NCBI GenBank assembly: GCA_910589415.1
Contig: OU342636.1
Coordinates: 5,934,437-5,998,436 of the forward strand
Length of the DNA stretch: 64,000 nt
From: Malachius bipustulatus
Taxonomy: Eukaryota; Arthropoda; Insecta; Coleoptera; Melyridae
Direction of reading: 5' to 3'
Shown here: piece by piece, positions 8,555 to 38,785 of the stretch
How positions within the stretch are numbered: position 1 is the first letter of the stretch
Layout: every line of letters starts with the position of its first letter
Translations under genes and position numbers: made by a program
The notes under the pieces: generated by a model
Seen by the model: the letters and a program-made list of their open reading frames with translations, nothing else
What the model was told of the DNA's origin: nothing
Databases searched by the model: none

Positions 8555-10238
8555 TACAGGGTTACTGGTAACTGGATACATTCCTTTGGTGATCTGATAA
8601 AACAACAGGTAAGGAGTAAATTAACCCCAACATGCACTATACAAAACTCAATAGATTTTGAGATATTTCGATTTTCAACTTTTCTTAAAAAAATGGTTTC
8701 AAATGTCTTGAAATGTAATTTTCAAAAAAACTACTTAACTTTTTGATTTTTTTTTTGCTGGAATACTTGTTCAATACTATGCTTCCTTCTGGAATAAAAA
8801 ATATCCTGAGGTATTTCGATCGTGTGAAAATTTCAAAGAAAAACTTTCACAAACTATTTTTTTTAAATAAGATTTAAAAGTTTTTACAAGTTATTTTCGC
8901 AAAATTGTCAAGGCAACTTGCGTATAAATTGTTTTAAAAACTTCCCTAGTGTAGTAGCTATCTAACAAGGTACGAATCTTGTACAAGAATAACAGAATCT
9001 CCCCGCTATGTACCGTTACCGAGGAACAAATCCTTAAGTCGGGACGTTTTAAAAAAAATACGGCCCTGAACGGGGGTCTTAAAATTCTCGGATCCGGCCC
9101 ATCTTCAACAGGTCGTATTTGGGGGTCCCGAGCTTCGTCCCTACCAAGTTTCGTCCCGATCGGTAAAACTTTCAGACACTAAGAGTGTTTCCTAGGCTAT
9201 TCCCGAAAAATCCCGAAATTCCCGAAAAAATTACACTTCCCGGGAACGGATCCCGCTCATTTTCAATGGGCATCGTGCCACGGTGCGCCTCTTCAATCGA
9301 GCGAAATTTCAACTTTCCCACATGAAAACTGGCGGCTCTAGAGTGTTTCCTAGCAAAGTCACAGAAGTTTCCTAAGTATACGTATTCTTGTGCCCGAAAA
9401 ATGTCTGTCTGTCGGTCTCTCTGTCTGTGACTTTGCTAGGAAACACTCTAGAGCCGCCAGTTTTCATGTGGGAAAGTTGAAATTTGGCTCGATTGAAGAG
9501 GCGCACCGTGGCAGGATGCCTATTGAAAATGAGCGGGATCCGTTCCCGGGAAGTGTCATTTTTTCGGGAATTTCGGGATTTTTCGGGAATAGCCTAGTAA
9601 TAGCCACTCTAAGTGTCTGAAAGTTTTACCGATCGGGACGAAACTTGGTAGGGACGAAGCTCGGGACCCCCAAATACGACCTGTTGAAGATGGGCCGGAT
9701 CCGAGAATTTTAAGACCCCCGTTCAGGGCCGTATTTTTTTAAAAACGTCCCGATTAAGGGATTTGTTCCTCGGTAACGGTACATAGCGGGGAGATTCTGT
9801 TATTCTTGTACAAGATTCGTACCTTGTAGATAGCTACTACACTAAGAAAGTTTTTAAAACAATTTGTACGCAAGGTGCCTTGACAATTTTGCGAAAATAA
9901 CTTGTAAAAACTTTTAAATCTTATTTAAAAAAAAATAGTTTGTGAAAGTTTTTCTTTGAAATTTTCACACGATCGAAATACCTCAGGATATTTTTTATTC
10001 CAGAAGGAAGCATAGTATTGGACAAGTATTCCAGCAAAAAAAAAATCAAAAAGTTAAAGTAGATTTTTTGAAAATTACATTTCAAGACATCTGAAACCAT
10101 TTTTTTAAGAAAAGTTGAAAATCGAAATATCTCAAAATCTATTGAGTTTTGTATAGTACATGTTGGGGTTAATTTACTCCTTACCTGTTGTTTTATCAGA
10201 TCACCAAAGGAATGTATCCAGTTACCAGTAACCCTGTA
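8555..10238. mobile_element. Foldback element (FB-F, copy 1): two arms of about 810 bp around a 60-bp loop
   Basis: The element starts TACAGGGTTACTGGTAACTG and ends with the reverse complement at 10238. Left arm 8555-about 9362 and right arm about 9422-10238 match in reverse complement with scattered differences. The loop (9363-9421) contains GTCTGTCTGTCGGTCTC-like sequence. The ends abut TA dinucleotides. No transposase is encoded. The same family, with a third arm, lies at 49363-51911. Reading frames of 60-85 codons inside the arms are by-products of the repeat. Probably a non-autonomous TA-targeting DNA element. Confidence 0.85.
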
Positions 10239-19932: not shown

Positions 19933-20805
19933 TACAGGGTGGGCCACGGAATACGAAACGGAAGATTATGGCCGTGTCTCTGGATTTTAGGATCTTTTTA
20001 TTTTTGGAGTGAATAGAGACCCGGCAAAGGTACGTTTTAAAATTATATTCATAATGTACAGGAGGTCCCAAAAGCATAAAACATATCAAAGTTATGCTTT
20101 TTTTTAAATGGAATGCTCCTATGTTATTGCATTGTTAGATTGTCTGAAAAGAGAAAATAAGATTGGCTTTTACAGTTGGTGCTTAAATTCAGAAGTTTTT
20201 GAGTTATAAACAAGTGAAAATCGTCATTTTTCAAGTTCATGGCCCTGTACAACGAAAACGGCTGAAGATAGAGAAAAACGGCTTACATGTCCCTATTTTA
20301 ACTTTCCATGTACTATCCTACGATGTAGATGAATTGTTTATACAGGGTGATAAAAAATTTGAAAAATTCTGAGATTTCTCCACGCGTCACCAAATAAAAA
20401 AATCAAAGAAAGCACAAATGTTTCTATACCATAGGATAGTACATAAAAAGTTAAAATAGGGACATGTAAGCCGTTTTTCTCTATCTTCAGCCGTTTTCGT
20501 TGTACAGGGCCTTGAACTTGAAAAATGACGATTTTCACTTGTTTATAACTCAAAAGCTTCTGAATTTAAACACCAACTGTAAAAGCCAATCTTATTATCT
20601 TTTTCCAGACAATCTAAAAATGCAATAACATAGGAGCATTCCATTTAAAAAAACATAACTTTGATATGTTTTATGCTTTTAGGACACCCTGTACATTATG
20701 AATATAATTTTAAAACGTACGTCTGCCGGGTCTCTATCCACTCCAAAAATAAAAAGATCCTAAAATCCAGAGACACGGCCATAATCTTCCGTTTCGTATA
20801 CCGTG
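19933..20805. mobile_element. Foldback element (FB-A), left arm, centre and most of right arm, split by the provirus
   Basis: Left end TACAGGGTGGGCCACGGAAT at 19933. The outer arm 19933-20055 is matched in reverse complement by 20696-20805. Between them lies a nested palindrome (about 20057-20690) bounded by TGTACAGG...CCTGTACA-type ends, with another CAGGGTG terminus at its centre (20340). The right arm stops at CGTG (20802-20805), where the provirus LTR begins. The missing terminus, CGTGGCCCACCCTGTATA, is found after the provirus at 41204-41222, proving the interruption. Confidence 0.85.
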
Positions 20806-21209
20806 AATTACGTATGTGCCCTTTTCCAAAGTATTTTTAAAAAACAATTTTAAAGTTTTAAAATACTTTATTAAAAAAAGACAAATAACTAACTTATAAA
20901 ACTACGTTGAATTACGAATGCAGAAGCCAATGTTAAAGACTTGCCAGCAAATTCATAACTGCCTGTTGTCTTGTTCATTTCAAGCCAAGAGGTCGTTACT
21001 CAAAGTAACCTGAGATAACTGTTTGTTTGCTGGAGTTGCTAGCAAGCAGTTTCTAGAAAGATACAAGGCTAAAGGATGATGCAATACTCCCTAAGTATGA
21101 AATTATAATAATAAATGCAAGTTTGCTAAAAGTTACCCTAGAGTACATATAGTGTAAAAAGTATATATCTATAATTAAAAATAATACATAACTTAGTCTA
21201 TACGTAACT
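20806..21209 (-). mobile_element. 3' LTR of the errantivirus-like provirus
   Basis: 404 bp, bounded by AATTACGTATG at the low-coordinate side and ATACGTAACT at 21209. The adjoining PPT candidate on the minus strand is GGCATGGAGG (21210-21219 in plus coordinates). Matches 38324-38683 plus 41145-41203 of the 5' LTR with few differences, mainly around 21150. Confidence 0.85.
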
Positions 21210-21233
21210 CCTCCATGCCAAAAAGAGCAAAAT

Positions 21234-22781
21234 TTACACTCTGTTTAAATTTTGCATCGAAATGTCATTTATATTCATTGGTTTTTGGACTTCTTCCTGT
21301 TTCGTCTTAATGACTAACTTAAATATTAAGTACATGATTAACATAGCTAAAAGTAAATATAATATGATTGTCCACACACTGATATTATTAGCATGAATTT
21401 TAGGCACTATTATATCATTAAGTTTTTCTTTATTTTGATTCATATTGGTCACAATTTCTTTAAGTTCATCCAAATTTATGTCTTCTAATTGAATCATTGG
21501 ATTGTCTTTAGGGTCATCTGGTTTGGGGATTATCACTTTTATATTGGGAACACTGACGTACCTTTTGGGCACCGTAGGGTTGTGATAGATTCTGATGACT
21601 TCATGTTGTAGTTTCAGGAAGCAGTTCTCAGATAGCGTGATGAGGTAATTGCCTTGAAGGGCTGATTTGTCTTCGTCCTGGTCGCAAACTGTGGTTACGG
21701 TGGTTTCCTTTGGAAATATGGCTATCCATTTGTTTTCGGTAGCTTTTTGTATTTTTGTTTGAGTCACATTGACATCGATAGGGCTACAATTGTCGTACTT
21801 GTTGGAATACAGCAGGAGCTGGACTTCACAGGGGCTTCCCTCGTTGACGGCATTGTTATTCATTGAATGACATATAAATTCTTCGGGAACAACTTCTAAG
21901 CATATTTCGTTTGAGAACCCAAATTTTCGCTCATTCAGGAAAAGGTATTTATTTTTGGGAATAATCATTTGGAAGTGGTCGACGGATTTTACCGGGAAAG
22001 AGAATAAATGATATTAAGTATACGAGTCAGGTTCTAAGATCGGTATTTCTATAATAAAGACAATCTCGTTCAGCTTAGAATAAGCTTTGACGACAGCTAT
22101 TTTCTCAAATAAGAGAATATTGTCCTTTGTAATTTCAAATGGCATTTTATTAATTTTTATTAGTGGATGGATGTTGATTAACTCGTCTAGGGGCTCATCT
22201 GGATCTATTATGCTTGCATGTAAGGTATTTAATTTAGCAAAAGTTATAGCATTTTCTAGAGTCATTAGAATTTGTTGTATCGTATTGATTGCCACTAGTA
22301 ATTATTGATTAAATATAGCATTGAAGTTTACCATTTGGTAGGTACTCGCATCTCGAATGCTGGTATCTTTCATTTGTTGTTCCATTTGCATTATTCTACT
22401 CTCCATTACTAATTGATTGTGAAGTAATTTAACAGAAGTTTCATTAAATTTCTTGATAGCATTTTCTTTTAATGAAATTTGATTTTCTGTTAACAATTTT
22501 AATTTGTTTTGATTATCGCTTAGTTGTTGGATAGCATTGTCATATTTTTCTGCGTCTGACGCATCTAAATTCCCAGTTATTGCTTTAAATATACTGCCTA
22601 GACCGTTAACAAGTCCTCTAGGTTTTCTAAGGTGATTATTTTCAGGAATGATTTGTTGAAACTTTTTACTAGTTCTCGTTATGAGGTCTTCTACAAGATA
22701 TTGATAGTTAAACATTTCCTGAGAGTATTCTTTTCCAAATTGGGTATTATTCATGGAACTATTTAGTCTAAGATAATTTTA
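21234..22781 (-). pseudogene. env of the errantivirus-like provirus, main part; two in-frame stops
   Basis: The frame enters from the array border at 22781 and continues through 22754-22302 and 22295-22014 to 21968-21234. In-frame TAA codons lie at 22302-22304 and 22014-22016; downstream sequence stays in the same frame. A furin-type site RKPR followed by a Gly-rich hydrophobic fusion-peptide-like stretch lies at about 22610-22625. The coiled-coil-like heptads after it suit a class I fusion protein. A single hydrophobic transmembrane segment is at about 21315-21385 with a short basic cytoplasmic tail. These are features of gypsy Env and baculovirus F proteins, which mediate membrane fusion. 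The N-terminal part of env lies on the far side of the 315-bp array. This copy cannot make full-length Env. Confidence 0.85.
22770..22781. repeat. Target-site duplication, left copy, of the 315-bp array
   Basis: TAAGATAATTTT immediately precedes the first array unit. The identical 12 bp lies at the other end, 31723-31734. It falls within the env coding frame. Confidence 0.8.
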
Positions 22782-22832
22782 ACAAAAAGATGAACGACAT
22801 ATCGTAAAACGATACGTCATTCATTGATTTCA

Positions 22833-22919
22833 TGCTGTGAGTCAGGGGTGGAAATTGTAGACACGTGTTTCGTCCTAATTGGGACTCTTCAGTACAATGT
22901 ATCTTGCTAACACACAGCA
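22833..22919 (-). ncRNA. Type I hammerhead ribozyme, first of 15 in the left block
   Basis: Same structure as the right-block copy at 27660-27746, on the minus strand. Further copies follow every 315 bp, with starts at 22833 + 315n for n = 0 to 14 (last 27243-27329). Confidence 0.88.
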
Positions 22920-25900
22920 CAATCTTAGTCACTTAATAGTGAGAAAAATGATAAAAATAAATTAAAATAAAAATAGCACGGTGGGTTCGGCTTTCGCCAT
23001 AGGATGCAACCCCAGGCAGCTAAAACGCATGCCAACAACTGAGTGCAGTGCCTCCCGATGTGCGTAAAGGTAGGAAAGGCCTACTTCCAAAGTTTAACAA
23101 AAAGATGAACGACATATCGTAAAACGATACGTCATTCATTGATTTCATGCTGTGAGTCAGGGGTGGAAATTGTAGACACGTGTTTCGTCCTAATTGGGAC
23201 TCTTCAGTACAATGTATCTTGCTAACACACAGCACAATCTTAGTCACTTAATAGTGAGAAAAATGATAAAAATAAATTAAAATAAAAATAGCACGGTGGG
23301 TTCGGCTTTCGCCATAGGATGCAACCCCAGGCAGCTAAAACGCATGCCAACAACTGAGTGCAGTGCCTCCCGATGTGCGTAAAGGTAGGAAAGGCCTACT
23401 TCCAAAGTTTAACAAAAAGATGAACGACATATCGTAAAACGATACGTCATTCATTGATTTCATGCTGTGAGTCAGGGGTGGAAATTGTAGACACGTGTTT
23501 CGTCCTAATTGGGACTCTTCAGTACAATGTATCTTGCTAACACACAGCACAATCTTAGTCACTTAATAGTGAGAAAAATGATAAAAATAAATTAAAATAA
23601 AAATAGCACGGTGGGTTCGGCTTTCGCCATAGGATGCAACCCCAGGCAGCTAAAACGCATGCCAACAACTGAGTGCAGTGCCTCCCGATGTGCGTAAAGG
23701 TAGGAAAGGCCTACTTCCAAAGTTTAACAAAAAGATGAACGACATATCGTAAAACGATACGTCATTCATTGATTTCATGCTGTGAGTCAGGGGTGGAAAT
23801 TGTAGACACGTGTTTCGTCCTAATTGGGACTCTTCAGTACAATGTATCTTGCTAACACACAGCACAATCTTAGTCACTTAATAGTGAGAAAAATGATAAA
23901 AATAAATTAAAATAAAAATAGCACGGTGGGTTCGGCTTTCGCCATAGGATGCAACCCCAGGCAGCTAAAACGCATGCCAACAACTGAGTGCAGTGCCTCC
24001 CGATGTGCGTAAAGGTAGGAAAGGCCTACTTCCAAAGTTTAACAAAAAGATGAACGACATATCGTAAAACGATACGTCATTCATTGATTTCATGCTGTGA
24101 GTCAGGGGTGGAAATTGTAGACACGTGTTTCGTCCTAATTGGGACTCTTCAGTACAATGTATCTTGCTAACACACAGCACAATCTTAGTCACTTAATAGT
24201 GAGAAAAATGATAAAAATAAATTAAAATAAAAATAGCACGGTGGGTTCGGCTTTCGCCATAGGATGCAACCCCAGGCAGCTAAAACGCATGCCAACAACT
24301 GAGTGCAGTGCCTCCCGATGTGCGTAAAGGTAGGAAAGGCCTACTTCCAAAGTTTAACAAAAAGATGAACGACATATCGTAAAACGATACGTCATTCATT
24401 GATTTCATGCTGTGAGTCAGGGGTGGAAATTGTAGACACGTGTTTCGTCCTAATTGGGACTCTTCAGTACAATGTATCTTGCTAACACACAGCACAATCT
24501 TAGTCACTTAATAGTGAGAAAAATGATAAAAATAAATTAAAATAAAAATAGCACGGTGGGTTCGGCTTTCGCCATAGGATGCAACCCCAGGCAGCTAAAA
24601 CGCATGCCAACAACTGAGTGCAGTGCCTCCCGATGTGCGTAAAGGTAGGAAAGGCCTACTTCCAAAGTTTAACAAAAAGATGAACGACATATCGTAAAAC
24701 GATACGTCATTCATTGATTTCATGCTGTGAGTCAGGGGTGGAAATTGTAGACACGTGTTTCGTCCTAATTGGGACTCTTCAGTACAATGTATCTTGCTAA
24801 CACACAGCACAATCTTAGTCACTTAATAGTGAGAAAAATGATAAAAATAAATTAAAATAAAAATAGCACGGTGGGTTCGGCTTTCGCCATAGGATGCAAC
24901 CCCAGGCAGCTAAAACGCATGCCAACAACTGAGTGCAGTGCCTCCCGATGTGCGTAAAGGTAGGAAAGGCCTACTTCCAAAGTTTAACAAAAAGATGAAC
25001 GACATATCGTAAAACGATACGTCATTCATTGATTTCATGCTGTGAGTCAGGGGTGGAAATTGTAGACACGTGTTTCGTCCTAATTGGGACTCTTCAGTAC
25101 AATGTATCTTGCTAACACACAGCACAATCTTAGTCACTTAATAGTGAGAAAAATGATAAAAATAAATTAAAATAAAAATAGCACGGTGGGTTCGGCTTTC
25201 GCCATAGGATGCAACCCCAGGCAGCTAAAACGCATGCCAACAACTGAGTGCAGTGCCTCCCGATGTGCGTAAAGGTAGGAAAGGCCTACTTCCAAAGTTT
25301 AACAAAAAGATGAACGACATATCGTAAAACGATACGTCATTCATTGATTTCATGCTGTGAGTCAGGGGTGGAAATTGTAGACACGTGTTTCGTCCTAATT
25401 GGGACTCTTCAGTACAATGTATCTTGCTAACACACAGCACAATCTTAGTCACTTAATAGTGAGAAAAATGATAAAAATAAATTAAAATAAAAATAGCACG
25501 GTGGGTTCGGCTTTCGCCATAGGATGCAACCCCAGGCAGCTAAAACGCATGCCAACAACTGAGTGCAGTGCCTCCCGATGTGCGTAAAGGTAGGAAAGGC
25601 CTACTTCCAAAGTTTAACAAAAAGATGAACGACATATCGTAAAACGATACGTCATTCATTGATTTCATGCTGTGAGTCAGGGGTGGAAATTGTAGACACG
25701 TGTTTCGTCCTAATTGGGACTCTTCAGTACAATGTATCTTGCTAACACACAGCACAATCTTAGTCACTTAATAGTGAGAAAAATGATAAAAATAAATTAA
25801 AATAAAAATAGCACGGTGGGTTCGGCTTTCGCCATAGGATGCAACCCCAGGCAGCTAAAACGCATGCCAACAACTGAGTGCAGTGCCTCCCGATGTGCGT

Positions 25901-27458
25901 AAAGGTAGGAAAGGCCTACTTCCAAAGTTTAACAAAAAGATGAACGACATATCGTAAAACGATACGTCATTCATTGATTTCATGCTGTGAGTCAGGGGTG
26001 GAAATTGTAGACACGTGTTTCGTCCTAATTGGGACTCTTCAGTACAATGTATCTTGCTAACACACAGCACAATCTTAGTCACTTAATAGTGAGAAAAATG
26101 ATAAAAATAAATTAAAATAAAAATAGCACGGTGGGTTCGGCTTTCGCCATAGGATGCAACCCCAGGCAGCTAAAACGCATGCCAACAACTGAGTGCAGTG
26201 CCTCCCGATGTGCGTAAAGGTAGGAAAGGCCTACTTCCAAAGTTTAACAAAAAGATGAACGACATATCGTAAAACGATACGTCATTCATTGATTTCATGC
26301 TGTGAGTCAGGGGTGGAAATTGTAGACACGTGTTTCGTCCTAATTGGGACTCTTCAGTACAATGTATCTTGCTAACACACAGCACAATCTTAGTCACTTA
26401 ATAGTGAGAAAAATGATAAAAATAAATTAAAATAAAAATAGCACGGTGGGTTCGGCTTTCGCCATAGGATGCAACCCCAGGCAGCTAAAACGCATGCCAA
26501 CAACTGAGTGCAGTGCCTCCCGATGTGCGTAAAGGTAGGAAAGGCCTACTTCCAAAGTTTAACAAAAAGATGAACGACATATCGTAAAACGATACGTCAT
26601 TCATTGATTTCATGCTGTGAGTCAGGGGTGGAAATTGTAGACACGTGTTTCGTCCTAATTGGGACTCTTCAGTACAATGTATCTTGCTAACACACAGCAC
26701 AATCTTAGTCACTTAATAGTGAGAAAAATGATAAAAATAAATTAAAATAAAAATAGCACGGTGGGTTCGGCTTTCGCCATAGGATGCAACCCCAGGCAGC
26801 TAAAACGCATGCCAACAACTGAGTGCAGTGCCTCCCGATGTGCGTAAAGGTAGGAAAGGCCTACTTCCAAAGTTTAACAAAAAGATGAACGACATATCGT
26901 AAAACGATACGTCATTCATTGATTTCATGCTGTGAGTCAGGGGTGGAAATTGTAGACACGTGTTTCGTCCTAATTGGGACTCTTCAGTACAATGTATCTT
27001 GCTAACACACAGCACAATCTTAGTCACTTAATAGTGAGAAAAATGATAAAAATAAATTAAAATAAAAATAGCACGGTGGGTTCGGCTTTCGCCATAGGAT
27101 GCAACCCCAGGCAGCTAAAACGCATGCCAACAACTGAGTGCAGTGCCTCCCGATGTGCGTAAAGGTAGGAAAGGCCTACTTCCAAAGTTTAACAAAAAGA
27201 TGAACGACATATCGTAAAACGATACGTCATTCATTGATTTCATGCTGTGAGTCAGGGGTGGAAATTGTAGACACGTGTTTCGTCCTAATTGGGACTCTTC
27301 AGTACAATGTATCTTGCTAACACACAGCACAATCTTAGTCACTTAATAGTGAGAAAAATGATAAAAATAAATTAAAATAAAAATAGCACGGTGGGTTCGG
27401 CTTTCGCCATAGGATGCAACCCCAGGCAGCTAAAACGCATGCCAACAACTGAGTGCAG

Positions 27459-27459
27459 A
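27459..27459. other. Inversion junction of the array
   Basis: At 27458/27459 the left block stops within a unit (GAGTGCAG) and the right block starts with ACGATATGTCG. The two blocks end at different unit positions, so this is not a symmetrical palindrome. The right block begins at the first base of the 3' strand of the unit's 16-bp hairpin. Confidence 0.85.
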
Positions 27460-27659
27460 CGATATGTCGTTCATCTTTTTGTTAAACTTTGGAAGTAGGC
27501 CTTTCCTACCTTTACGCACATCGGGAGGCACTGCACTCAGTTGTTGGCATGCGTTTTAGCTGCCTGGGGTTGCATCCTATGGCGAAAGCCGAACCCACCG
27601 TGCTATTTTTATTTTAATTTATTTTTATCATTTTTCTCACTATTAAGTGACTAAGATTG

Positions 27660-27746
27660 TGCTGTGTGTTAGCAAGATACATTGTACTGAAGAGTCCCAA
27701 TTAGGACGAAACACGTGTCTACAATTTCCACCCCTGACTCACAGCA
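27660..27746 (+). ncRNA. Type I hammerhead ribozyme, first of 13 in the right block
   Basis: Outer stem I TGCTGTG (27660-27666) pairs with CACAGCA (27740-27746). Inner stem I ATTGTA (27681-27686) pairs with TACAAT (27720-27725), with internal loops of about 14 bases on each side that could make the usual tertiary contact with the stem II loop. Core CTGAAGA 27687-27693; stem II GTCC/GGAC with loop CAATTA; core GAAA 27708-27711; stem III CAC/GTG; cleavage after C27719. All invariant bases fit. Further copies follow at +315 to 31440. Such ribozymes process long tandem transcripts into unit-length RNAs, which can be ligated to circles. Confidence 0.9.
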
Positions 27747-30700
27747 TGAAATCAATGAATGACGTATCGTTTTACGATATGTCGTTCATCTTTTTGTTAA
27801 ACTTTGGAAGTAGGCCTTTCCTACCTTTACGCACATCGGGAGGCACTGCACTCAGTTGTTGGCATGCGTTTTAGCTGCCTGGGGTTGCATCCTATGGCGA
27901 AAGCCGAACCCACCGTGCTATTTTTATTTTAATTTATTTTTATCATTTTTCTCACTATTAAGTGACTAAGATTGTGCTGTGTGTTAGCAAGATACATTGT
28001 ACTGAAGAGTCCCAATTAGGACGAAACACGTGTCTACAATTTCCACCCCTGACTCACAGCATGAAATCAATGAATGACGTATCGTTTTACGATATGTCGT
28101 TCATCTTTTTGTTAAACTTTGGAAGTAGGCCTTTCCTACCTTTACGCACATCGGGAGGCACTGCACTCAGTTGTTGGCATGCGTTTTAGCTGCCTGGGGT
28201 TGCATCCTATGGCGAAAGCCGAACCCACCGTGCTATTTTTATTTTAATTTATTTTTATCATTTTTCTCACTATTAAGTGACTAAGATTGTGCTGTGTGTT
28301 AGCAAGATACATTGTACTGAAGAGTCCCAATTAGGACGAAACACGTGTCTACAATTTCCACCCCTGACTCACAGCATGAAATCAATGAATGACGTATCGT
28401 TTTACGATATGTCGTTCATCTTTTTGTTAAACTTTGGAAGTAGGCCTTTCCTACCTTTACGCACATCGGGAGGCACTGCACTCAGTTGTTGGCATGCGTT
28501 TTAGCTGCCTGGGGTTGCATCCTATGGCGAAAGCCGAACCCACCGTGCTATTTTTATTTTAATTTATTTTTATCATTTTTCTCACTATTAAGTGACTAAG
28601 ATTGTGCTGTGTGTTAGCAAGATACATTGTACTGAAGAGTCCCAATTAGGACGAAACACGTGTCTACAATTTCCACCCCTGACTCACAGCATGAAATCAA
28701 TGAATGACGTATCGTTTTACGATATGTCGTTCATCTTTTTGTTAAACTTTGGAAGTAGGCCTTTCCTACCTTTACGCACATCGGGAGGCACTGCACTCAG
28801 TTGTTGGCATGCGTTTTAGCTGCCTGGGGTTGCATCCTATGGCGAAAGCCGAACCCACCGTGCTATTTTTATTTTAATTTATTTTTATCATTTTTCTCAC
28901 TATTAAGTGACTAAGATTGTGCTGTGTGTTAGCAAGATACATTGTACTGAAGAGTCCCAATTAGGACGAAACACGTGTCTACAATTTCCACCCCTGACTC
29001 ACAGCATGAAATCAATGAATGACGTATCGTTTTACGATATGTCGTTCATCTTTTTGTTAAACTTTGGAAGTAGGCCTTTCCTACCTTTACGCACATCGGG
29101 AGGCACTGCACTCAGTTGTTGGCATGCGTTTTAGCTGCCTGGGGTTGCATCCTATGGCGAAAGCCGAACCCACCGTGCTATTTTTATTTTAATTTATTTT
29201 TATCATTTTTCTCACTATTAAGTGACTAAGATTGTGCTGTGTGTTAGCAAGATACATTGTACTGAAGAGTCCCAATTAGGACGAAACACGTGTCTACAAT
29301 TTCCACCCCTGACTCACAGCATGAAATCAATGAATGACGTATCGTTTTACGATATGTCGTTCATCTTTTTGTTAAACTTTGGAAGTAGGCCTTTCCTACC
29401 TTTACGCACATCGGGAGGCACTGCACTCAGTTGTTGGCATGCGTTTTAGCTGCCTGGGGTTGCATCCTATGGCGAAAGCCGAACCCACCGTGCTATTTTT
29501 ATTTTAATTTATTTTTATCATTTTTCTCACTATTAAGTGACTAAGATTGTGCTGTGTGTTAGCAAGATACATTGTACTGAAGAGTCCCAATTAGGACGAA
29601 ACACGTGTCTACAATTTCCACCCCTGACTCACAGCATGAAATCAATGAATGACGTATCGTTTTACGATATGTCGTTCATCTTTTTGTTAAACTTTGGAAG
29701 TAGGCCTTTCCTACCTTTACGCACATCGGGAGGCACTGCACTCAGTTGTTGGCATGCGTTTTAGCTGCCTGGGGTTGCATCCTATGGCGAAAGCCGAACC
29801 CACCGTGCTATTTTTATTTTAATTTATTTTTATCATTTTTCTCACTATTAAGTGACTAAGATTGTGCTGTGTGTTAGCAAGATACATTGTACTGAAGAGT
29901 CCCAATTAGGACGAAACACGTGTCTACAATTTCCACCCCTGACTCACAGCATGAAATCAATGAATGACGTATCGTTTTACGATATGTCGTTCATCTTTTT
30001 GTTAAACTTTGGAAGTAGGCCTTTCCTACCTTTACGCACATCGGGAGGCACTGCACTCAGTTGTTGGCATGCGTTTTAGCTGCCTGGGGTTGCATCCTAT
30101 GGCGAAAGCCGAACCCACCGTGCTATTTTTATTTTAATTTATTTTTATCATTTTTCTCACTATTAAGTGACTAAGATTGTGCTGTGTGTTAGCAAGATAC
30201 ATTGTACTGAAGAGTCCCAATTAGGACGAAACACGTGTCTACAATTTCCACCCCTGACTCACAGCATGAAATCAATGAATGACGTATCGTTTTACGATAT
30301 GTCGTTCATCTTTTTGTTAAACTTTGGAAGTAGGCCTTTCCTACCTTTACGCACATCGGGAGGCACTGCACTCAGTTGTTGGCATGCGTTTTAGCTGCCT
30401 GGGGTTGCATCCTATGGCGAAAGCCGAACCCACCGTGCTATTTTTATTTTAATTTATTTTTATCATTTTTCTCACTATTAAGTGACTAAGATTGTGCTGT
30501 GTGTTAGCAAGATACATTGTACTGAAGAGTCCCAATTAGGACGAAACACGTGTCTACAATTTCCACCCCTGACTCACAGCATGAAATCAATGAATGACGT
30601 ATCGTTTTACGATATGTCGTTCATCTTTTTGTTAAACTTTGGAAGTAGGCCTTTCCTACCTTTACGCACATCGGGAGGCACTGCACTCAGTTGTTGGCAT

Positions 30701-31722
30701 GCGTTTTAGCTGCCTGGGGTTGCATCCTATGGCGAAAGCCGAACCCACCGTGCTATTTTTATTTTAATTTATTTTTATCATTTTTCTCACTATTAAGTGA
30801 CTAAGATTGTGCTGTGTGTTAGCAAGATACATTGTACTGAAGAGTCCCAATTAGGACGAAACACGTGTCTACAATTTCCACCCCTGACTCACAGCATGAA
30901 ATCAATGAATGACGTATCGTTTTACGATATGTCGTTCATCTTTTTGTTAAACTTTGGAAGTAGGCCTTTCCTACCTTTACGCACATCGGGAGGCACTGCA
31001 CTCAGTTGTTGGCATGCGTTTTAGCTGCCTGGGGTTGCATCCTATGGCGAAAGCCGAACCCACCGTGCTATTTTTATTTTAATTTATTTTTATCATTTTT
31101 CTCACTATTAAGTGACTAAGATTGTGCTGTGTGTTAGCAAGATACATTGTACTGAAGAGTCCCAATTAGGACGAAACACGTGTCTACAATTTCCACCCCT
31201 GACTCACAGCATGAAATCAATGAATGACGTATCGTTTTACGATATGTCGTTCATCTTTTTGTTAAACTTTGGAAGTAGGCCTTTCCTACCTTTACGCACA
31301 TCGGGAGGCACTGCACTCAGTTGTTGGCATGCGTTTTAGCTGCCTGGGGTTGCATCCTATGGCGAAAGCCGAACCCACCGTGCTATTTTTATTTTAATTT
31401 ATTTTTATCATTTTTCTCACTATTAAGTGACTAAGATTGTGCTGTGTGTTAGCAAGATACATTGTACTGAAGAGTCCCAATTAGGACGAAACACGTGTCT
31501 ACAATTTCCACCCCTGACTCACAGCATGAAATCAATGAATGACGTATCGTTTTACGATATGTCGTTCATCTTTTTGTTAAACTTTGGAAGTAGGCCTTTC
31601 CTACCTTTACGCACATCGGGAGGCACTGCACTCAGTTGTTGGCATGCGTTTTAGCTGCCTGGGGTTGCATCCTATGGCGAAAGCCGAACCCACCGTGCTA
31701 TTTTTATTTTAATTTATTTTTT

Positions 31723-31734
31723 TAAGATAATTTT
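31723..31734. repeat. Target-site duplication, right copy, of the 315-bp array
   Basis: TAAGATAATTTT, identical to 22770-22781. The env frame resumes here on the minus strand. Confidence 0.8.
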
Positions 31735-31860
31735 GTCTTAAAGAAGCAAATTCTTCTTTCAGTGTTGTCAAGTCGTATTTTTGAATGAATGTCCAATAGT
31801 CAACTGAATTTTGCATTTTTCCTAATTTAATGGGCATTAACCCCGGATTATCAATAATTT
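31723..31860 (-). pseudogene. env N-terminal segment, separated from the rest by the array
   Basis: Downstream of the pol stop (31864) the minus strand has an open frame containing IIDNPGLMPIKLGK, typical of the N-terminal region of errantiviral Env. It runs to the array border at 31723. Removing the array and one 12-bp repeat brings this frame directly into the frame that resumes at 22781. The start codon or splice arrangement cannot be told; gypsy-type Env is usually made from a spliced RNA. Confidence 0.75.
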
Positions 31861-31863
31861 TCT

Positions 31864-34800
31864 TTATTTCCAAGCTTTTGGGACTTCCAGACGAGGTAAG
31901 GAAGTGGACGGCGAGGAGTATCCATCTGAAATAGATTTAATTTTGTCAGGGGGTTTAAGTTTAATGTTTTGAAGTATCTTTATTTTATCATTGGATTTTG
32001 ATTGATCTGGTTCAGTTTCAGAGGTAGAAGATTCGGTTTGAGGTGAGCGCGAATGACGAAGATTTTTGAGATGGACGTATCTATGATTACCGTTGTCGTT
32101 TATTAGCGCTAAATTTTTCTTAGTAATTTTAATTATCGTGTAGGGTCCTTTATTTCTTTCTAAAGTTTTATGTCGTTTGCTTTTGTAATTTACTTCAAAA
32201 ACTTCTTGACCTACTTCTAACTGTTTTAAGTCTGAATCCGCATTTCGTTTTTCTGCTACTCTCTGCTTTTCTTTATCGAGAGTTTGATTTACATTTTTGT
32301 AAGTAATTGCCAACTTTTCTTTATGATTTTTAGCGTATTCTTGGTACACTTGTTTATTGTAATGGATATCATAAGGATTGCGTGCACTTGAGTGACCTAA
32401 CGTAAGTTCATACGGGGTGAAACTCGTCGAATGGATCGTGTTATTGTAGGCAATGATTGCGTAAAGCATCAAGGTGGTAATTGGATCTGTCTTTGAATTT
32501 ATTCTCATCAGTCTAATTTGTTCTAACAAGGTTGAATGTAATCTCTCAATAAGTCCGTTGGATTCTGGATGGTTTTCGGTTACGAAATGTACTTTAATTT
32601 TATGTAACTCTAATGTATTTTGAACTGTCTCGTTACAAAATTCGACACCGTTATCAAAAGTTATCATTTCTGGGACTGAATAAAAAGAAAAGTACTGTAT
32701 GAGAGCATTGGCGATGCTAATGCTGTTCTTTGAGGCGATAGATATGGCCTGGCCTAGTTTAGTAAAGGCGTCTATGATTGTTAGAAAATTTTGACTTTCT
32801 ACTACAATCCATATGGAGTTTTTGAAAAGGTTTCTCCGGTGTACTGGTTATTACAAGTGGAACTTTAGGTGGGTTCCTATCGTACTTGGCTTTTTTGCAG
32901 AGGTCGCAATTATTAATGTACTGTGTAACTTTGTCTTTCATGTCTGGGAAGTAGTATTTTCTTTGAAGCTGTTTAAGAGTTTCTAAAATCCCTCTATGAT
33001 TAGTTTTTCCTTCATGTTGTTGTTTTATTGTCAAGGTCTGTTCTTCGGGATCGTCTATGGTCGTTAGTTTGACGGTGTATCTTATTATTTCAGGTCCATC
33101 ATTATTAAATAATTTTGTGTATACGTTACAGAATTTTTTATAAAGATTTTCGGTGGAAAAGTGAAAATAGTACCGTTTCTTACTTGAGGTGTAATGTTTC
33201 AGGAATTGGATTATTTCTTTTTCATTATTGTCTTTGGTAATTTGAACGTTATATTTTGACTGATTATTTTTCTTTATTATTTTTACAGGATGTGGGTTTG
33301 TAAAAACTTCAGTAATGAAAAATTGATTTGGCTTAGAATCGATAGCTTCATCTAAAATTTTAATAGAATTTTTAGGTTCAGGATTTTGATTGGAATGTAC
33401 GGTGTTGTCGTCAACATCGTCATTTAATTCTTCTAATGCATTTTCTGTTTCATCAAAGTTACCCATGATGGACTCGTTTTCGAGAGCATTGATGTGAATT
33501 CTGCTTAAAGCGTCTGCATTAGTATTTAATTTACCTTTTTTGTAAATTATTTGAAAATCATATTCGTGTAACCTAATTTTCCAGCGTTGTAATTTGCTAT
33601 TGGGATTTTTTAGTTTGAAGAACCAAACTAAGGGTCTGTGATCAGTATAGACCAGAAAGGGTCGTCCATATAAATAAGGGCGAAAATATTTCGTACTCCA
33701 AACAATTGCTAGTTTGTTCTTTTTCAAAAGCGTCATATTTTTGTTCTGTTTCATTTATTAGTGTTCTAGATGCATAACACACGGGTCTGTCATTCCCTAT
33801 ACTACTCTGACTCAAAACCGCCCCTAAACTTACATTTGATGCATCCGTCGTAAGGATAAAAGGTTTTGTAAAGTCAGGATATTGCAGGATTGGGTGGTTA
33901 GTGAGTAATTGTTTACATGTTTCGAAAGCTTCTACGAATTCTCGGGTGTGTTCTACCTTTCTACCCTTTTTTAAACAAATTGTCATTGGTTTGGTTAACT
34001 TTACAAAATCTTTAATGAATTTACGGTAGTAGCCTACTAGACCTAAAAAACTTTTGATTTCCTTTTGTGTTTTAGGAATAGGGTAATTTACTACGGCTGA
34101 GATTTTATCCGGGTTAGGTTTTACACCTTCTGGCGTAACAATGTGGCCAAGAAATTGTATTGTAAATTGTGTGAAAAATTGTAAATTGACACATTTTTCA
34201 TTATTAATGCCTCTAAGTACATTATCGATGACACGTTGGAATGTGCTAAGTGAATTTTTCATTCCGAAGGGCATGCGTTTGTATTCGTAGTGACCGCGGG
34301 GAGTGCTGAAGGCTGTTTTGCTTATGTCACTTTTTTCCATTTCGATCTGGTGAAAACCAGAGGCAAGATCTAATGTCGAAAAGTATTGACATCGACCAAG
34401 TTTGTCTAAAATATCCGAAATGTTAGGTAGCGGATACTTATCATCGATTGTCTTTTCATTGAGCAATCTATAATCTACGCAGAGACGATATTTTTTGCGT
34501 CCTGATGCGTCTGCCTTTTTAGGTACAATTATTATGGGACTGGACCATGGGGAATGAGAAGGTTGAATTATGTCTTGGTCTAATAATTCTTGTACTTGTC
34601 TGTCAGCTTCTCTTTGCAATACTTCTGGTAATCTATAAGCTTTTTTATAAATTGGAGTATCGTCTGTCAGTTTCACTTGATGTTTTATTTCATTAGTAAA
34701 TGATAAAGGAATTTTCTCACAGTGAAATATATCTCTGAATTCTAGACACAGTTTACGTATCTCGGTATATTCTTCCTTATTTAAATGATTAAGTCTCAGG

Positions 34801-35508
34801 TTTCGCATATTTTCTTTCAAGAGACGGTCGCATTCATAATCGTACTCGACTGGTAGTTCATTTACCTCACTATGATCGTAATTATTTAATTCTTCGGTTA
34901 CAATGGGTTGAGTTAATTTTAACTCTACAGGGTGATCATTGGAATTTATTATGGATGTGATTGCATAATTATTTTTTATCTGCACAAGTGCAGTGGGAAT
35001 TTCTAATCCTCTTTGAAATGATTGGTAATTAATTATTGCCGGACCAGAGATTTTATCGACTGGTATTTTGATCACTTTTTGAGTTCTAGCACCTACAGTG
35101 AATGAATGGATGTCATTATCATGAGATTGAAAATAAATTGGAATTTTGGCAAATCTAGTTTCTAAAATTTGATTTTTTAAGTTGATGTTGGCACTCAATT
35201 TTCTTAAAAGATCCATACCTATTAGTCCATTGTATTTTTCATTAAAATCAAATATACAAAATTTATGTTTCATTTTAATGCCAAAAGTTTTCGGCAATGG
35301 GATACTTGCGACATATTTATGACTGGTGGTGTTGTGAGCGGTTTTAATTTTAAACGGTTCAACTTCTACAAAATCTTTATAAAATTCCTCGACAGTTTGT
35401 TTACTGATTAGTGTCTTACTGCTACCTGTATCTATCAAAAATTTTAGGTTCGCGTGCGGAATTTTAATGTACGGTAGAATATGAACATTATCGATATTAT
35501 TTACATTT
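31864..35508 (-). pseudogene. pol of the errantivirus-like provirus; RT catalytic motif deleted, two frameshifts
   Basis: Protease with LIDTGSSKTLI at about 35430; reverse transcriptase with YRLCVDYRLLN, FSTLDLASGF and RMPFGMKNSLSTFQ. The YxDD block expected between GINNEKC and FLGHIV (about 34190) is missing, an internal deletion that leaves the frame open. RNase H has TTDASNVSLGAV; a frameshift at about 33750 leads to YTDHRPLVW and the integrase zinc finger (H-H, CDLC). A second frameshift near 32760-32830 separates the first catalytic Asp (HMDC) from FDNGVEF and SNGLIERL. The C-terminal domain ends at 31864. Pol is entered from gag by a -1 shift, since the pol frame is open back past the gag stop at 35510. 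Known role: replication and integration of the provirus; this copy cannot do so. Confidence 0.9.
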
Positions 35509-35509
35509 A

Positions 35510-37858
35510 TTATGTCTGATCGTTGTTGGCTTGACTTAAGTGAAAATTTTGGTAATTTTCGTCATGACTATTTTCATGGTTTAAAATTTCAGACTCATCG
35601 TACTGCTCATAAAATTCATTGCGATTTTCGGGTTGTTTACATTCCTCCTGATAGATTATTTCGTCTGAGGCTTCGGCTGCATAAGGATGGGATGAAGAAG
35701 AATGTGGTTCTTGATCATTATTTATTTCCTGATGATAAAGTTCTTGGGACATGAAATTATTTTGGAACGGTCGTTGTGTTCTCTGTGTCTGATAGGTTTG
35801 TCTAGTATTACCGGACGAAATGTCCATTGGCGTGGGCTCGTATTGTGTGGAGTTTGCATTTTTTGCAAATTGCTGAGATGGTGCAAATGAAGGTTTATTT
35901 TGTGCTTGAAATTTTGGATAGAAATTTTGGGTATTCCTATTCGGAATTGATGGGCGTGCATTAAAAGATGTTTGCGGTTGATTTTGGGAATAAAATGTTT
36001 GTCTTGGTGATTGTGGGTTGGAATAATAATTATTACCAGGTGGAGGTACATAAAAATTATTTCGAAAATTATTTTGAGGAAACGGTAATGGCTTGGCAGG
36101 TTGCAATTTCATTACTGGTTTATAATTTTTATTTAAATTTGGATTATACAGGGTGGTCCAACTTAAAACGTCAGGACTTTACCAAACGATAGATATCGTT
36201 AAAATAATGCCAGTTTCTCTAATACACTTATAGCCGGGAAAGCTTCCTTTTCAAGATACAGGGTGTTGAAGTTTTGGGGAAAAAAATAATGTTTTGTGAA
36301 TATTGTCAAAACGGCTGCTTTAAAAAATAGAAATTTGGCACGCAGCATGAGCTATAAGTATCTTTCATGATTTATGGCTTATGGTGAATGCGAAATTGCG
36401 AAAACCAGCGGCGGAGATATGGGTGTCATCGCCCCTTAAAAAAAAAATTGACGCCACTGACTCTATGGTTACTGACAATTGTTACATTAGTTAGGTGTTG
36501 TTTATTTCTGTTATTTAATTAATTAAGTAAAAGTTATTTGATTAGAATTTGTCTGTTATTCTTAAAATAGCTACGGATATTACCTAAGAAAACCTTAATT
36601 ATCTCGAAAACGGTGCGCCTAGTGAAAAAAATTAGAGAATACTCTTTTGTTTTAAAAAGCATGGGGCATTGAATAGTATTATTAACTTTTCCACAGAGTC
36701 AGTGGCGTCAATTTTTTTTTTGAAAAGGGGGCGATGGCACACCCATATCTCCGCCGCTGGTTTTCGCAATTTATCACCATAAGCCGTAAATCATGAAAGA
36801 TACTTAGCTCATGCTGCGTGCCAAATTTCAATTTTTTTAAAGCAGCCGTTTTGACAATATTCGCAAAACATTATTTTTTTCCCAAAACTTCAACGCCCTG
36901 TATCTTGAAAAGAAAGCTTTCCCGGCTATAAGTGTATTAGAGAAACTGGCATTATTTTAACGTTATCTATCGTTTGGTAAAGTCCTGACGTTTTAAGTTG
37001 GACCACCCTGTATAACCTGTTCCTGTAATAAGTTATATTTTCTTCCTCAACAATTAAATTCATAGCGGTTTCTAAATCTTTAGGAGAACGTATTCTAATT
37101 TTATCAGAAAGTCTCTCTGGTAAACCGTTTAAAAAGGTATCAAGAGCCATTTCATCATATAAATTTGCTTTAATTTTACGTATATTTTTATCGGCTTCCT
37201 CGAGGTTTAACTTTGTTAAAATTAGACTACGTACGTCTTGGCATTTCATACCAAACTGGTATGGTGTTTCATTTCATTCAATTCTTAAATTAAGCAAATC
37301 TCTAACTAAGCATTTAGTATTTCGTTGATCTCCGAAATAACTAATAAGTAATTGTTTAATAGTACCCCAAGTGGTGGCTTCTTCTCTGCTACCAATTAAA
37401 GTTAAAGCTCGACCTTCCAGTTTATTAACAACTATCCTTAATAGCCATTCGTTAACTAAGGGTTTGGTTGGATCATTAAAAGTTTCGAAAAAATTTTCGC
37501 AAGCTGATATAAAAATACCTAAAGTAGCTTGATCGCCATTGTATTTAGGAATAGCATCAATAAAAAATTTCTCAAGATTCATTTTTGGTAAAGCCGGCTC
37601 GCTTTTAATATTATTAGTAATCGAATTACTAGCTGAATCAATAATTATATTTTTACTCAACTTAGACTCTCTAATATAATTTTTTGAATTATTACTACTA
37701 CTACTAGTGCTAACCGTTGCTAAGGGTGAGCTTGAATTATTATTTATAAGTTTTAAAAATCTACTTTCAATATCTTCGGAATCTGTTTCTGAACTAGATT
37801 GTTCTTCTATAATAGATAATTCCTGAATTTTATTCAATATATCATTTACTTCCGACAT
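35510..37858 (-). pseudogene. gag of the errantivirus-like provirus, split by a foldback insertion and one stop
   Basis: Starts at the ATG at 37858 (MSEVNDILNKIQELSI). An in-frame TGA at 37274-37276 is followed by continued homology-like sequence. The capsid-like region (FINGLPERL-type motif, here TFLNGLPERLSDKIR) ends at the FB element (36145-37014). After that insertion the frame continues with an Asn/Gln/Pro-rich tail to the stop at 35510. No zinc knuckle is visible, as is common in errantiviral Gag. The first 75 codons are Ser/Asn-rich. The product would assemble the particle; the copy is inactive. Confidence 0.8.
36145..37014. mobile_element. Foldback element (FB-D) inserted in gag
   Basis: Begins TATACAGGGTGGTCCAAC and ends with its reverse complement, GTTGGACCACCCTGTATA (870 bp). 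Arms of about 330 bp match, for example around GTCAGGACTTTACCAAACGA and GGCGGAGATATGGGTG. A central region (about 36480-36690) is unique. TA repeats at each border. It postdates the provirus because it breaks gag. Non-coding. Confidence 0.9.
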
Positions 37859-38147
37859 AAATAATTAAAGACACAATTGGAAAAATGGAATAAGAATTAG
37901 GAACGAATGAGACTTACATGTAAAACATATTTCTTAATTTCGACTCCGCTGGCGATGTGGGTCCTTTGGAGAAGTGATGACTCAGCTGGGCGATGTAGTC
38001 CCTTGGAGTCTTGATGGCTCCGTAAGGCGATGTAGTCCTCTTGGAGTGTAGTTGAATTCGATTCTCGATGAATTGTTGAAACAAAAAGTCTTTGCCCGAA
38101 AAGTTACAGATTTTTGTGCACACTTTTTCGAACTAGGACCTTCGAAA
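37859..38147 (-). other. 5' leader between primer-binding site and gag
   Basis: 289 bp on the minus strand containing three GTAGTCC-type and GGAGTC-type repeats at about 37955-38045. No gene. Expected position of the packaging leader. Confidence 0.5.
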
Positions 38148-38165
38148 ATCCTACTGACTGCGCCA
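38148..38165 (-). promoter_or_regulatory. Primer-binding site of the provirus
   Basis: Minus strand reads TGGCGCAGTCAGTAGGAT directly at the LTR edge. TGGCGCAGTC-type sites complementary to a serine tRNA 3' end are characteristic of several errantiviruses. The assignment to serine tRNA is from memory of the family, not a match run here. Confidence 0.7.
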
Positions 38166-38323
38166 ATTACGTATGTGTTTTATATGTTTTATGCTTTTGG
38201 GACACCCTGTACATTATGAATATAATTTTAAAACGTACCTCTGCCGGGTCTCTATCCATTCCAAAAATAAAAAGATCCTAAAATCCAGAGACACGGCCAT
38301 AATCTTCCGTTTCGTATACCGTG
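38165..38323. repeat. Foreign segment inside the 5' LTR: copy of the foldback flank of the other LTR
   Basis: AATTACGTATGTG (38165-38177) is followed by about 145 bp that match 20670-20805, the foldback sequence flanking the 3' LTR, including the CCGTG before the LTR, and then by AATTACGTATGTGCCC again (38324). The foldback segment should not occur on this side of the provirus. See the matching finding. Confidence 0.8.
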
Positions 38324-38683
38324 AATTACGTATGTGCCCTTTTCCAAAGTATTTTTAAAAAACAATTTTAAAGTTTTTAAATACTTTATTAAAAAAAAGA
38401 CAAATAACTAACTTATAAAACTACGTTGAATTACGAATGCAGAAGCCAATGTTAAAGACTTGCCAGCAAATTCATAACTGCCTGTTGTCTTGTTCATTTT
38501 AAGCCAAGAGGTCGTTACTCAAAGTAACCTGAGATAACTGTTTGTTTGCTGGAGTTGCTAGCAAGCAGTTTCTAGAAAGATACAAGGCTAAAGGATGATG
38601 CAATACTCCCTAAGTATGAAATAATAATTATAAATGCAAGTTTGCTAAAAGTTACCCTAGAGTACATATAGTGTAAAGTATAT
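38324..38683 (-). mobile_element. 5' LTR of the provirus, larger part
   Basis: Matches 20806-21165 of the 3' LTR nearly base for base. It is interrupted at ATAGTGTAAAGTATAT (38668-38683) by the insertion 38684-41144 and resumes at 41145-41203. Confidence 0.85.
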
Positions 38684-38785
38684 TTAAATTATGAATGTAG
38701 TAAACCACCGTTATTTTTAATTATTTGAAAATTAGGTAAAGGCAAGCAGTGTGTCGCAAATAAAAGGTATGATCCTTTTTTGTTA

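What the first reader, a model, noticed from the sequence alone, without database searches (positions are those of the whole stretch)
22782..31722. A 315-bp tandem array encoding about 28 hammerhead ribozymes (retrozyme-like)
Every full unit folds into a type I hammerhead: CTGAAGA core, GTCC/GGAC stem II, GAAA, palindromic CACGTG stem III, cleavage after GTGTC, inner stem I ATTGTA/TACAAT and outer stem TGCTGTG/CACAGCA. A long tandem transcript would be cut to 315-nt RNAs, the situation described for animal retrozymes whose RNAs circularise. The sequence supports the structure directly; self-cleavage, circularity and abundance are inferred. The unit has no convincing protein.
Basis: partly seen in the sequence, partly recalled or inferred. 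Interest (0 to 1): 0.95.

Follow-up and report, generated by a model that had tools for sequence, protein, structure and literature searches.

The report
Two-way ribozyme array inserted by retrotransposon
A tiny non-coding parasite carrying a self-cutting RNA has been copied dozens of times into this probable beetle genome, and its insertions bear the same unusual signature as one particular Penelope-type retrotransposon, which points to the enzyme that may move it and to a two-ended copying process.

Summary
The array is real: 28 type I hammerheads in perfect 315-bp units. It is two head-to-head arms, 14.9 minus-strand and 13.5 plus-strand units, inside a Gypsy-type element and framed by a 12-bp target duplication. 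In the same 544-Mb genome I examined 22 arrays of the family: 15 have arms of at least one unit in both directions, always minus then plus; two more have a 7-8-nt second arm; five are one-way. In 14 of the 15, one arm starts near unit position 78 (site A) and the other near 220 (site B). Duplications are mostly 12-13 bp, inside a two-fold symmetric site, GNC-(12 AT-rich bp)-GNC. In several arrays, diagnostic variants fill both arms, pointing to one template. One Penelope-like family (RT plus GIY-YIG, open frame) has the same duplication, target motif, head-to-head arms and two-start asymmetry in 10 of 10 pairs sharing a duplication; none of eight pairs of other Penelope-like families showed it (ends unresolved in two). 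Best reading: a metazoan retrozyme whose RNA, probably circular, is reverse-transcribed from both ends of a 12-nt staggered break by Penelope-type machinery. Cleavage, circularity and enzyme activity are untested.

The parts
22766..22768 (.). GTC flanking motif, left half of the symmetric target (GNC)
   Evidence: Sequence; consensus over insertions
22769..22780 (.). Left copy of the 12-bp target site duplication TAAGATAATTTT
   Evidence: last three bases (TTT) also match the unit
22778..27458 (-). Minus-sense arm, 4681 bp = 14.86 units, 15 hammerheads; outer end at unit position 79 (site A) once the duplication is taken off
   Evidence: zero mismatches
27458..27459 (.). Head-to-head junction, no microhomology
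27459..31721 (+). Plus-sense arm, 4263 bp = 13.53 units, 13 hammerheads; outer end at unit position 222 (site B), followed by one extra T
27681..27725 (+). Representative type I hammerhead ribozyme; predicted cleavage after 27719
   Evidence: Rfam RF00163, 53.5 bits
27720..28034 (+). One unit, cleavage site to cleavage site (unit coordinates 1-315 used in this report)
31723..31734 (.). Right copy of the 12-bp target site duplication
31735..31737 (.). GTC flanking motif, right half of the symmetric target
   Evidence: Sequence
20660..38695 (-). Host element of the insertion: Gypsy-type retroelement with pol-like frames (31864-35438) and an envelope-like frame (22302-22754), LTRs 20660-21178 and 38178-38695 (504 matches, 13 mismatches); array sits between pol end and env

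Best explanation
This is one insertion of a metazoan (non-LTR) retrozyme family. Its 315-nt hammerhead-bearing RNA, most likely circular, is captured by a Penelope-like retroelement machine of the family called F2 here. The endonuclease, probably a dimer, cuts both strands just 5' of a GNC motif, 12 bp apart, leaving two 12-nt 3' overhangs. Each overhang primes reverse transcription of the same RNA: one at site A (unit ~78), the other at site B (unit ~220). Each polymerase usually runs round the RNA more than once. The two cDNA ends are joined in the middle by end joining (0-7 nt of microhomology or a short insert), which gives a head-to-head double array with a 12-bp target duplication. Shown by sequence: architecture, start sites, duplication, target motif, shared diagnostic variants in both arms of several arrays, and the same signature in F2. 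Inferred: RNA circularity, dimeric enzyme, F2 as the actual mover, simultaneous priming.
For: Head-to-head arms, minus then plus, in 15 of 22 arrays examined, a 7-8-nt second arm in 2 more, one-way in 5. One end at A and the other at B in 14 of 15 (same calls and 120). Exact flank repeat of 12-14 bp in 13 of 16 loci, one of them an artefact, against 5 of 240 mismatched flank pairs at 10 bp or more. Target motif: G in 20 of 28 and C in 24 of 28 half-sites. Diagnostic variants filling both arms: L034 11/11 and 1/1, L036 4/4 and 13/13 or 14/14, two sites in L090 and three in L091. F2 PLE: 10 of 10 head-to-head pairs sharing a TSD use site 1 for one arm and site 2 for the other, TSDs 11-13 bp, half-site G 14 of 16. 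None of eight pairs of other PLE families showed the signature. Site B shares an exact 12-mer with F2 site 1. A written prediction for L091 held except for 2 nt. A purified PLE cuts and extends both strands and starts internally at two sites (PMC11167929).
Against: C7:31593625-31599544 has its right end at unit 123 and no shared repeat of 8 bp or more within the 371 bp read on each side. Five of 22 arrays are one-way; four of these lack an undisputed TSD. In L091 two variants (unit 99 and 255) are in 1 of 3 minus units but 6 of 6 and 4 of 5 plus units, so its arms are not wholly uniform, and 13 of 27 arms hold variants confined to some units. Site A has no clear counterpart in F2. Of ten F2 ends read without a TSD to fix the frame, by eye 3 fit the motif (L063, L069, L086), 5 do not (L061, L067, L068, L088, L089) and 2 are ambiguous (L085, L087). 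Two of the eight control PLE pairs had unresolved ends. LINEs of this genome were not tested as movers. A uniform linear multimer could also give identical units.
Confidence: 0.75

Rival explanations
1. The mover is another retroelement (a LINE, or a Penelope-like family not sampled) that shares the target; F2 resembles it by coincidence or kinship.
For: Not all PLE families were sampled; LINEs are present in the window. Site A is not matched in F2.
Against: 12-bp TSD, GNC motif and one-arm-each start asymmetry coincide only with F2 among the ten PLE pairs fetched.
Confidence: 0.15
2. The template is a long linear multimeric transcript of an existing array, not a circle.
For: Transcripts of a uniform array would also give uniform units; a purified PLE is reported to use unprocessed RNA as its main substrate (PMC11167929).
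Against: Hammerheads of most invertebrate retrozymes are reported to cut efficiently (PMC7229834, abstract), so long multimers should not last. In L024 the plus arm stops exactly at the cleavage site, as expected if the RNA was cut there. Circles are reported as abundant in other animals (PMC7229834).
Confidence: 0.2
3. The inversion comes from self-priming (snap-back) of one cDNA, as proposed for rotifer Penelope elements (PMC3846280).
For: Head-to-head is called the most frequently observed arrangement of Penelope elements in that paper.
Against: That proposal rests on palindromes at the inverted junction; the 12 junctions inspected join unrelated unit positions with 0-7 nt microhomology or 1-26 nt between exact arms. 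It does not predict two different fixed outer ends.
Confidence: 0.07
4. An ordinary satellite array that expanded by unequal exchange and later inverted.
For: Perfectly uniform long arrays exist.
Against: Dispersed loci with 12-bp TSDs, preferred ends and locus-specific variants.
Confidence: 0.02
5. Assembly artefact (fold-back reads).
For: 28 identical units are hard to assemble; copy number may be off.
Against: Different unique flanks on the two sides, TSDs, and the same architecture at independent loci.
Confidence: 0.02

Closest known systems
Metazoan non-LTR retrozymes (Cervera & de la Pena 2020, PMC7229834)
   Same: Type I hammerhead, 170-400-nt unit, tandem copies, low GC, TSDs above 4 bp, dispersed
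   Different: Head-to-head double arrays, A/B starts and a 12-bp TSD in a GNC-N12-GNC target are not mentioned in the parts read (words inverted, opposite, head-to-head: 0 occurrences in its main text; supplements not seen)
Penelope-like elements, e.g. PAc of Anolis (PMC11167929) and Adineta Penelope (PMC3846280)
   Same: Both DNA strands cut and extended and two internal RT start sites (PAc); AT-rich target; head-to-head copies and short TSDs (Adineta); hammerhead in the element (PAc)
   Different: The retrozyme is non-coding and its two starts lie about 140 nt apart; in F2 they lie about 35 nt apart (site 1 / 'tail')
L1 twin priming (recalled, from no call)
   Same: Both break ends prime on one RNA, giving a head-to-head insert with TSD
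   Different: In L1 an occasional outcome with variable TSD; here the usual one, with preferred starts and a 12-bp TSD, and repeated copying of the template
Plant LTR retrozymes (PMC4918200: listing and start of abstract seen; features taken from PMC7229834)
   Same: Hammerhead-bearing non-autonomous elements with circRNA intermediates
   Different: Type III hammerhead, LTRs, 4-bp TSDs

Membership tests
Metazoan non-LTR retrozyme | Canonical type I hammerhead in each unit | tested here: met
   28 Rfam hits at 53.5 bits
Metazoan non-LTR retrozyme | Tandem unit of 170-400 bp, GC below 45%, no protein | tested here: met
   315 bp, 129 of 315 G+C, frames with stops
Metazoan non-LTR retrozyme | Dispersed mobile copies with TSDs larger than 4 bp | tested here: met
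Metazoan non-LTR retrozyme | Expression as linear and circular RNA; self-cleavage | not testable with these tools
   No RNA data or bench
Penelope-like element (family F2, the proposed mover) | RT and GIY-YIG endonuclease in one frame | tested here: met
   RVT_1 38.2 bits and GIY-YIG 34.4 bits in an 810-aa frame of L092
Penelope-like element (family F2, the proposed mover) | Tandem/inverted copies with pLTRs and optional tail | tested here: met
   one arm ends at site 1, the other about 35 nt further at site 2
Penelope-like element (family F2, the proposed mover) | Minimal type I hammerhead in the pLTR | tested here: inconclusive
   Motif seen by eye and folded; no Rfam hammerhead match
Mobilisation of the retrozyme by F2 | Same TSD length, target motif and two-start head-to-head structure | tested here: met
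   one two-armed array does not fit
Mobilisation of the retrozyme by F2 | F2 protein acts on retrozyme RNA | not testable with these tools
   Bench assay needed
Satellite DNA (simple tandem array) | Array extended in place without insertion signature | tested here: not met
   TSDs and preferred ends at dispersed loci

The most novel reading that the evidence does not exclude
Animal retrozymes are circular-RNA parasites of one specific Penelope-like family. A dimeric PLE ribonucleoprotein makes a symmetric 12-nt staggered cut at GNC-N12-GNC and copies one RNA circle from both break ends at once, each subunit entering at its own fixed site. This two-headed rolling-circle target-primed reverse transcription would be the normal PLE mechanism and would also explain the head-to-head PLE arrays of this genome.
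Probability: 0.55. Interest if true: 0.92.

Novelty: new variant of a known kind. Interest (0 to 1): 0.82.

Why it matters
Which enzyme moves animal retrozymes is open in the papers read: PLEs are named as a strong candidate from shared features and co-existence (PMC7229834, Discussion). Here insertion anatomy links the retrozyme to one PLE family out of several in the same genome, with base-level predictions for a cleavage and priming assay. It also suggests a concrete mechanism for the head-to-head structure of Penelope elements.

Tried and rejected
Rejected: plain tandem satellite; self-priming (junctions join unrelated positions); assembly fold-back. Led nowhere: IMG/VR pattern scan, 0 hits; Rfam on PLE ends, no match at E 0.1 and seven weak matches at E up to 10, none a hammerhead; PDB search with the F2 protein, 0 hits; unit against the rest of the window, best E 0.009 over 35 bases; BLAST of the unit against PLE 3' ends gave only short AT-rich matches, among them the 12-mer at site B. 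Eight pairs of PLE families other than F2 served as controls: in 5 the ends lie in TA repeats (TSD length unresolved), 1 has a 12-bp repeat in AT-rich DNA without GNC, 2 have unresolved ends.

Rows dropped: L026's 13-bp 'TSD' is the unit itself. In one search the automatic placement failed for L023 (its TSD word occurs 6 times) and I took its ends; it also could not place the 7-8-nt arms of L024 and L033, which I read by eye. F2 pair C1:62474371/62476256 (also site 2 / site 1) was dropped because no TSD is shared. Two F2 pairs with 11-bp TSDs and the unpaired F2 ends were left out of the motif count. Three retrozyme insertions read after (L091, L094/95, L096/97) are not in its 28 half-sites; by eye they add G 4 of 6 and C 3 of 6. 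L062, L065 and L066 held no F2 match.

Not done: the full list of arrays (337-339 unit matches per search, lists cut); LINEs as movers; any tree of PLE families; RNA data.

Full report
Observation. Rfam finds 28 type I hammerheads, 15 on the minus and 13 on the plus strand, each 53.5 bits against a cut-off of 34. Tandem Repeats Finder gives two abutting 315-bp arrays. Base-by-base comparison shows no mismatch to one unit over 22778-27458 (minus sense) and 27459-31721 (plus sense). A 12-bp direct repeat, TAAGATAATTTT, frames it (22769-22780, 31723-31734), and GTC stands outside both copies. The array lies inside a Gypsy-type element between pol-like and envelope-like frames (the envelope match is to Baculo_F, 20.7 bits, below its cut-off of 24.1). 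That element's LTRs differ at 13 of 517 aligned bases; the array, lying inside it, is younger. The RNA of one unit folds better than shuffles (z -3.35, 1 of 100 shuffles as good).

The family in its genome. The assembly holding the window has 544 Mb in 52 contigs. Named relatives of a LINE RT of the window among the best 120 listed are from beetles (Tribolium, Callosobruchus, Photinus), so the host is probably a beetle. Three searches each report 337-339 unit matches as lower bounds. I examined 22 arrays: the window, L021-L036, L090, L091 (with L093), and three more by their ends and the listing (L094-L099). Fifteen have arms of at least one unit in both directions, always minus then plus. L024 and L033 have a minimal minus arm of 7-8 nt at site A before the plus array. 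Five (L021, L026, L030, L032, L035) are one-way. None of the 22 is tail-to-tail.

Two preferred outer ends. With unit position 1 defined as the base after the cleavage site, and the duplication taken off, outer ends fall at 77-80 (site A) or 214-224 (site B, mostly 219-224). The later arrays agree: site B about 217-220 in L090, L091, L094 and L096, site A at 77-79 in L091, L095 and L097; in L090 four further bases follow site A before the duplication. Of the 15 two-armed arrays, 14 have A on one side and B on the other; the exception is C7:31593625-31599544, whose right end is at unit 123 with no shared repeat. L024 and L033 are A/B as well. A may lie on either side. Neither site is the cleavage site. 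Site B lies in a stretch predicted to be mostly unpaired in the circular fold; site A is less clear-cut (paired in the minimum-energy structure, mostly unpaired in the ensemble). In L024 the plus arm stops exactly at unit 1, the hammerhead cut.

Target. Longest exact repeats between the two flanks were 12 bp in 9, 13 in 3 and 14 in 1 of 16 loci, and 4-6 in 3; L026's 13 is an artefact. Among 240 mismatched flank pairs only 5 reached 10 bp. In 12 insertions turned to the same orientation, G stands at -3 in 11, C at -1 in 9, G at +1 in 8 and C at +3 in 10, and TSD GC is 14% against 40% in the flanks. Counted as half-sites over 14 insertions, G 20 of 28 and C 24 of 28 (binomial p 6e-9 and 1.5e-13 at an assumed 0.2). 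Where the exact repeat is longer than 12 bp (L033, L034, L035, L036), the 12-bp frame was chosen by hand. GNC is its own reverse complement, so the site is two-fold symmetric: each strand is cut just 5' of GNC, 12 bp apart, leaving 3' overhangs (inference from the insertion ends).

One template per array. In L034 a one-base deletion is in 11 of 11 minus and 1 of 1 plus units; in L036 two variants are in 4 of 4 minus and in 13 of 13 and 14 of 14 plus units. In L090 two variants fill both arms (3 of 3 and 3 of 3). In L091 three do (3 of 3 minus; 5-6 of 5-6 plus), but two others are in 1 of 3 minus and in 6 of 6 and 4 of 5 plus units, which one uniform template does not explain. Across the 17 arrays, 11 of 27 arms have no variant at all, 13 hold variants confined to some units, and three hold only variants present in every unit. 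In the cut list the listed units have one length in both arms of an array: 316 bp at C7:31593625, 313 bp at C4:25518556, C1:85007475 and C3:54991087; unlisted units may differ (a 319-bp gap at C3). This fits repeated copying of one RNA from both sides. It does not separate a circle from a uniform linear multimer.

Junctions. The 12 junctions read have microhomology of 0 (3), 1 (1), 5 (2) or 7 (1) nt, or 1-26 nt between the exact arms (5); L031's 26 is largely a variant plus unit. Their unit positions differ. This looks like end joining of two cDNAs and not like the palindromic junctions taken as self-priming in rotifer Penelope elements (PMC3846280, passages and Discussion seen).

The mover. 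A GIY-YIG search lists 150 scored matches in the genome, many in frames of 823-855 aa and often as minus-then-plus neighbours. I fetched both outer stretches of ten such pairs. Two belong to one family, F2: GCC[TAAAAATCTATT]GCC and GCC[TTTTTTTAAAAT]GTC, with the two arms ending about 35 nt apart. The other eight pairs showed no such site: five end in TA repeats, one (L051/L052) has a 12-bp repeat in AT-rich DNA without GNC, and in two (L041/L042, L053/L054) the ends were not resolved. A search with the F2 3' end gave 41 matches. Eleven minus-plus pairs have one arm at site 1 (query end 162-171) and the other at site 2 (198-199). Ten of these share a TSD of 11-13 bp; one does not and was dropped. 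In one search mismatched flanks reached at most 8 bp. For the eight pairs with at least 12 bp, half-sites have G 14 of 16 and C 11 of 16 (T in the other 5). Ten F2 ends read without a TSD fit less well: 3 yes, 5 no, 2 ambiguous, by eye. F2 encodes RT and GIY-YIG in one open frame, its first ATG lies between site 1 and site 2, and its pLTR carries a motif that reads by eye as a minimal hammerhead, though Rfam does not score it. Retrozyme site B and F2 site 1 share the exact 12-mer TTTATCATTTTT at the start point (BLAST E 0.54 by itself, so only the position makes it notable).

Prediction test. Before fetching the right end of L091 I wrote that it must end at site B (219-224) and be followed by TCTTTATTCTAA and a G-N-C/T. 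It is followed by exactly TCTTTATTCTAA and GTT; the arm ends at about unit 217, two bases outside the range I had written. Of three further arrays, two fit (A/B ends, 13-bp exact repeat; one has GGT and GTT flanks, the other GGC but no G on the right) and one does not.

Mechanism and literature. Purified Anolis PLE protein is reported to cut and extend both strands, at AT-rich sites, starting at two internal RNA sites, and is predicted to be a dimer (PMC11167929, parts 1 and 2 of 4 read). Cervera and de la Pena propose PLEs as strong candidates for moving animal retrozymes and tandem cDNA from a circle (PMC7229834, parts 1-3 of 6 and the Discussion read). Of PMC8490949, PMC7761336 and PMC11722881 I saw passages only. 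My reading joins these: both 3' overhangs of one 12-nt staggered break prime on one retrozyme RNA. I found no description of head-to-head retrozyme arrays or of this target in the listings and passages seen; subscription papers, supplements and preprints were not searched, so this is not proof of absence from print.

What remains inferred. Transcription, self-cleavage, circularity, the dimer, and the action of F2 on the retrozyme were not tested. LINEs were not tested as rival movers. The copy number of 28 depends on the assembly.

Noticed in passing
G000 contig C11 (3382-82839), not in the window: Penelope-like units with a period of about 3327 bp, 6 minus then 18 plus, 21 of the 24 with an 833-aa open frame: a giant head-to-head PLE array like the retrozyme ones.
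   Followed up: no
L025 minus arm (C4:36967437-36970004): The minus arm carries three A-to-G changes at unit 36, 55 and 60, each in 1 of 9 units (whether in the same unit was not checked), all within the strong hairpin; could be editing of double-stranded RNA or chance.
   Followed up: no
window 22778-31721: A read-through transcript would contain more than 4 kb of inverted repeat and could feed small-RNA silencing of the family.
   Followed up: no
L091 (C16:17928722 onwards): Two variants (unit 99 and 255) are rare in the minus arm but near-fixed in the plus arm: mixed template, later conversion or mutation.
   Followed up: no
C4:39136284-39137688 (L038): A 1.4-kb secondary insertion splits the plus arm of the L036 retrozyme array.
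   Followed up: no
window 8549-10225 and 50240-51917: A 1.68-kb segment repeated in inverted orientation at 97% identity, with further copies at 49354-50245.
   Followed up: no
L092 1-290 (F2 pLTR): A short intron-like stretch (GTAAGT ... TTTCAG) ends directly before the hammerhead-like motif; introns in Penelope pLTRs are mentioned in a passage of PMC11722881.
   Followed up: partly
L039/L040, L047/L048, L049/L050, L055/L056, L057/L058: Pairs of other PLE families of the genome end in TA repeats, i.e. different families seem to have different targets.
   Followed up: partly
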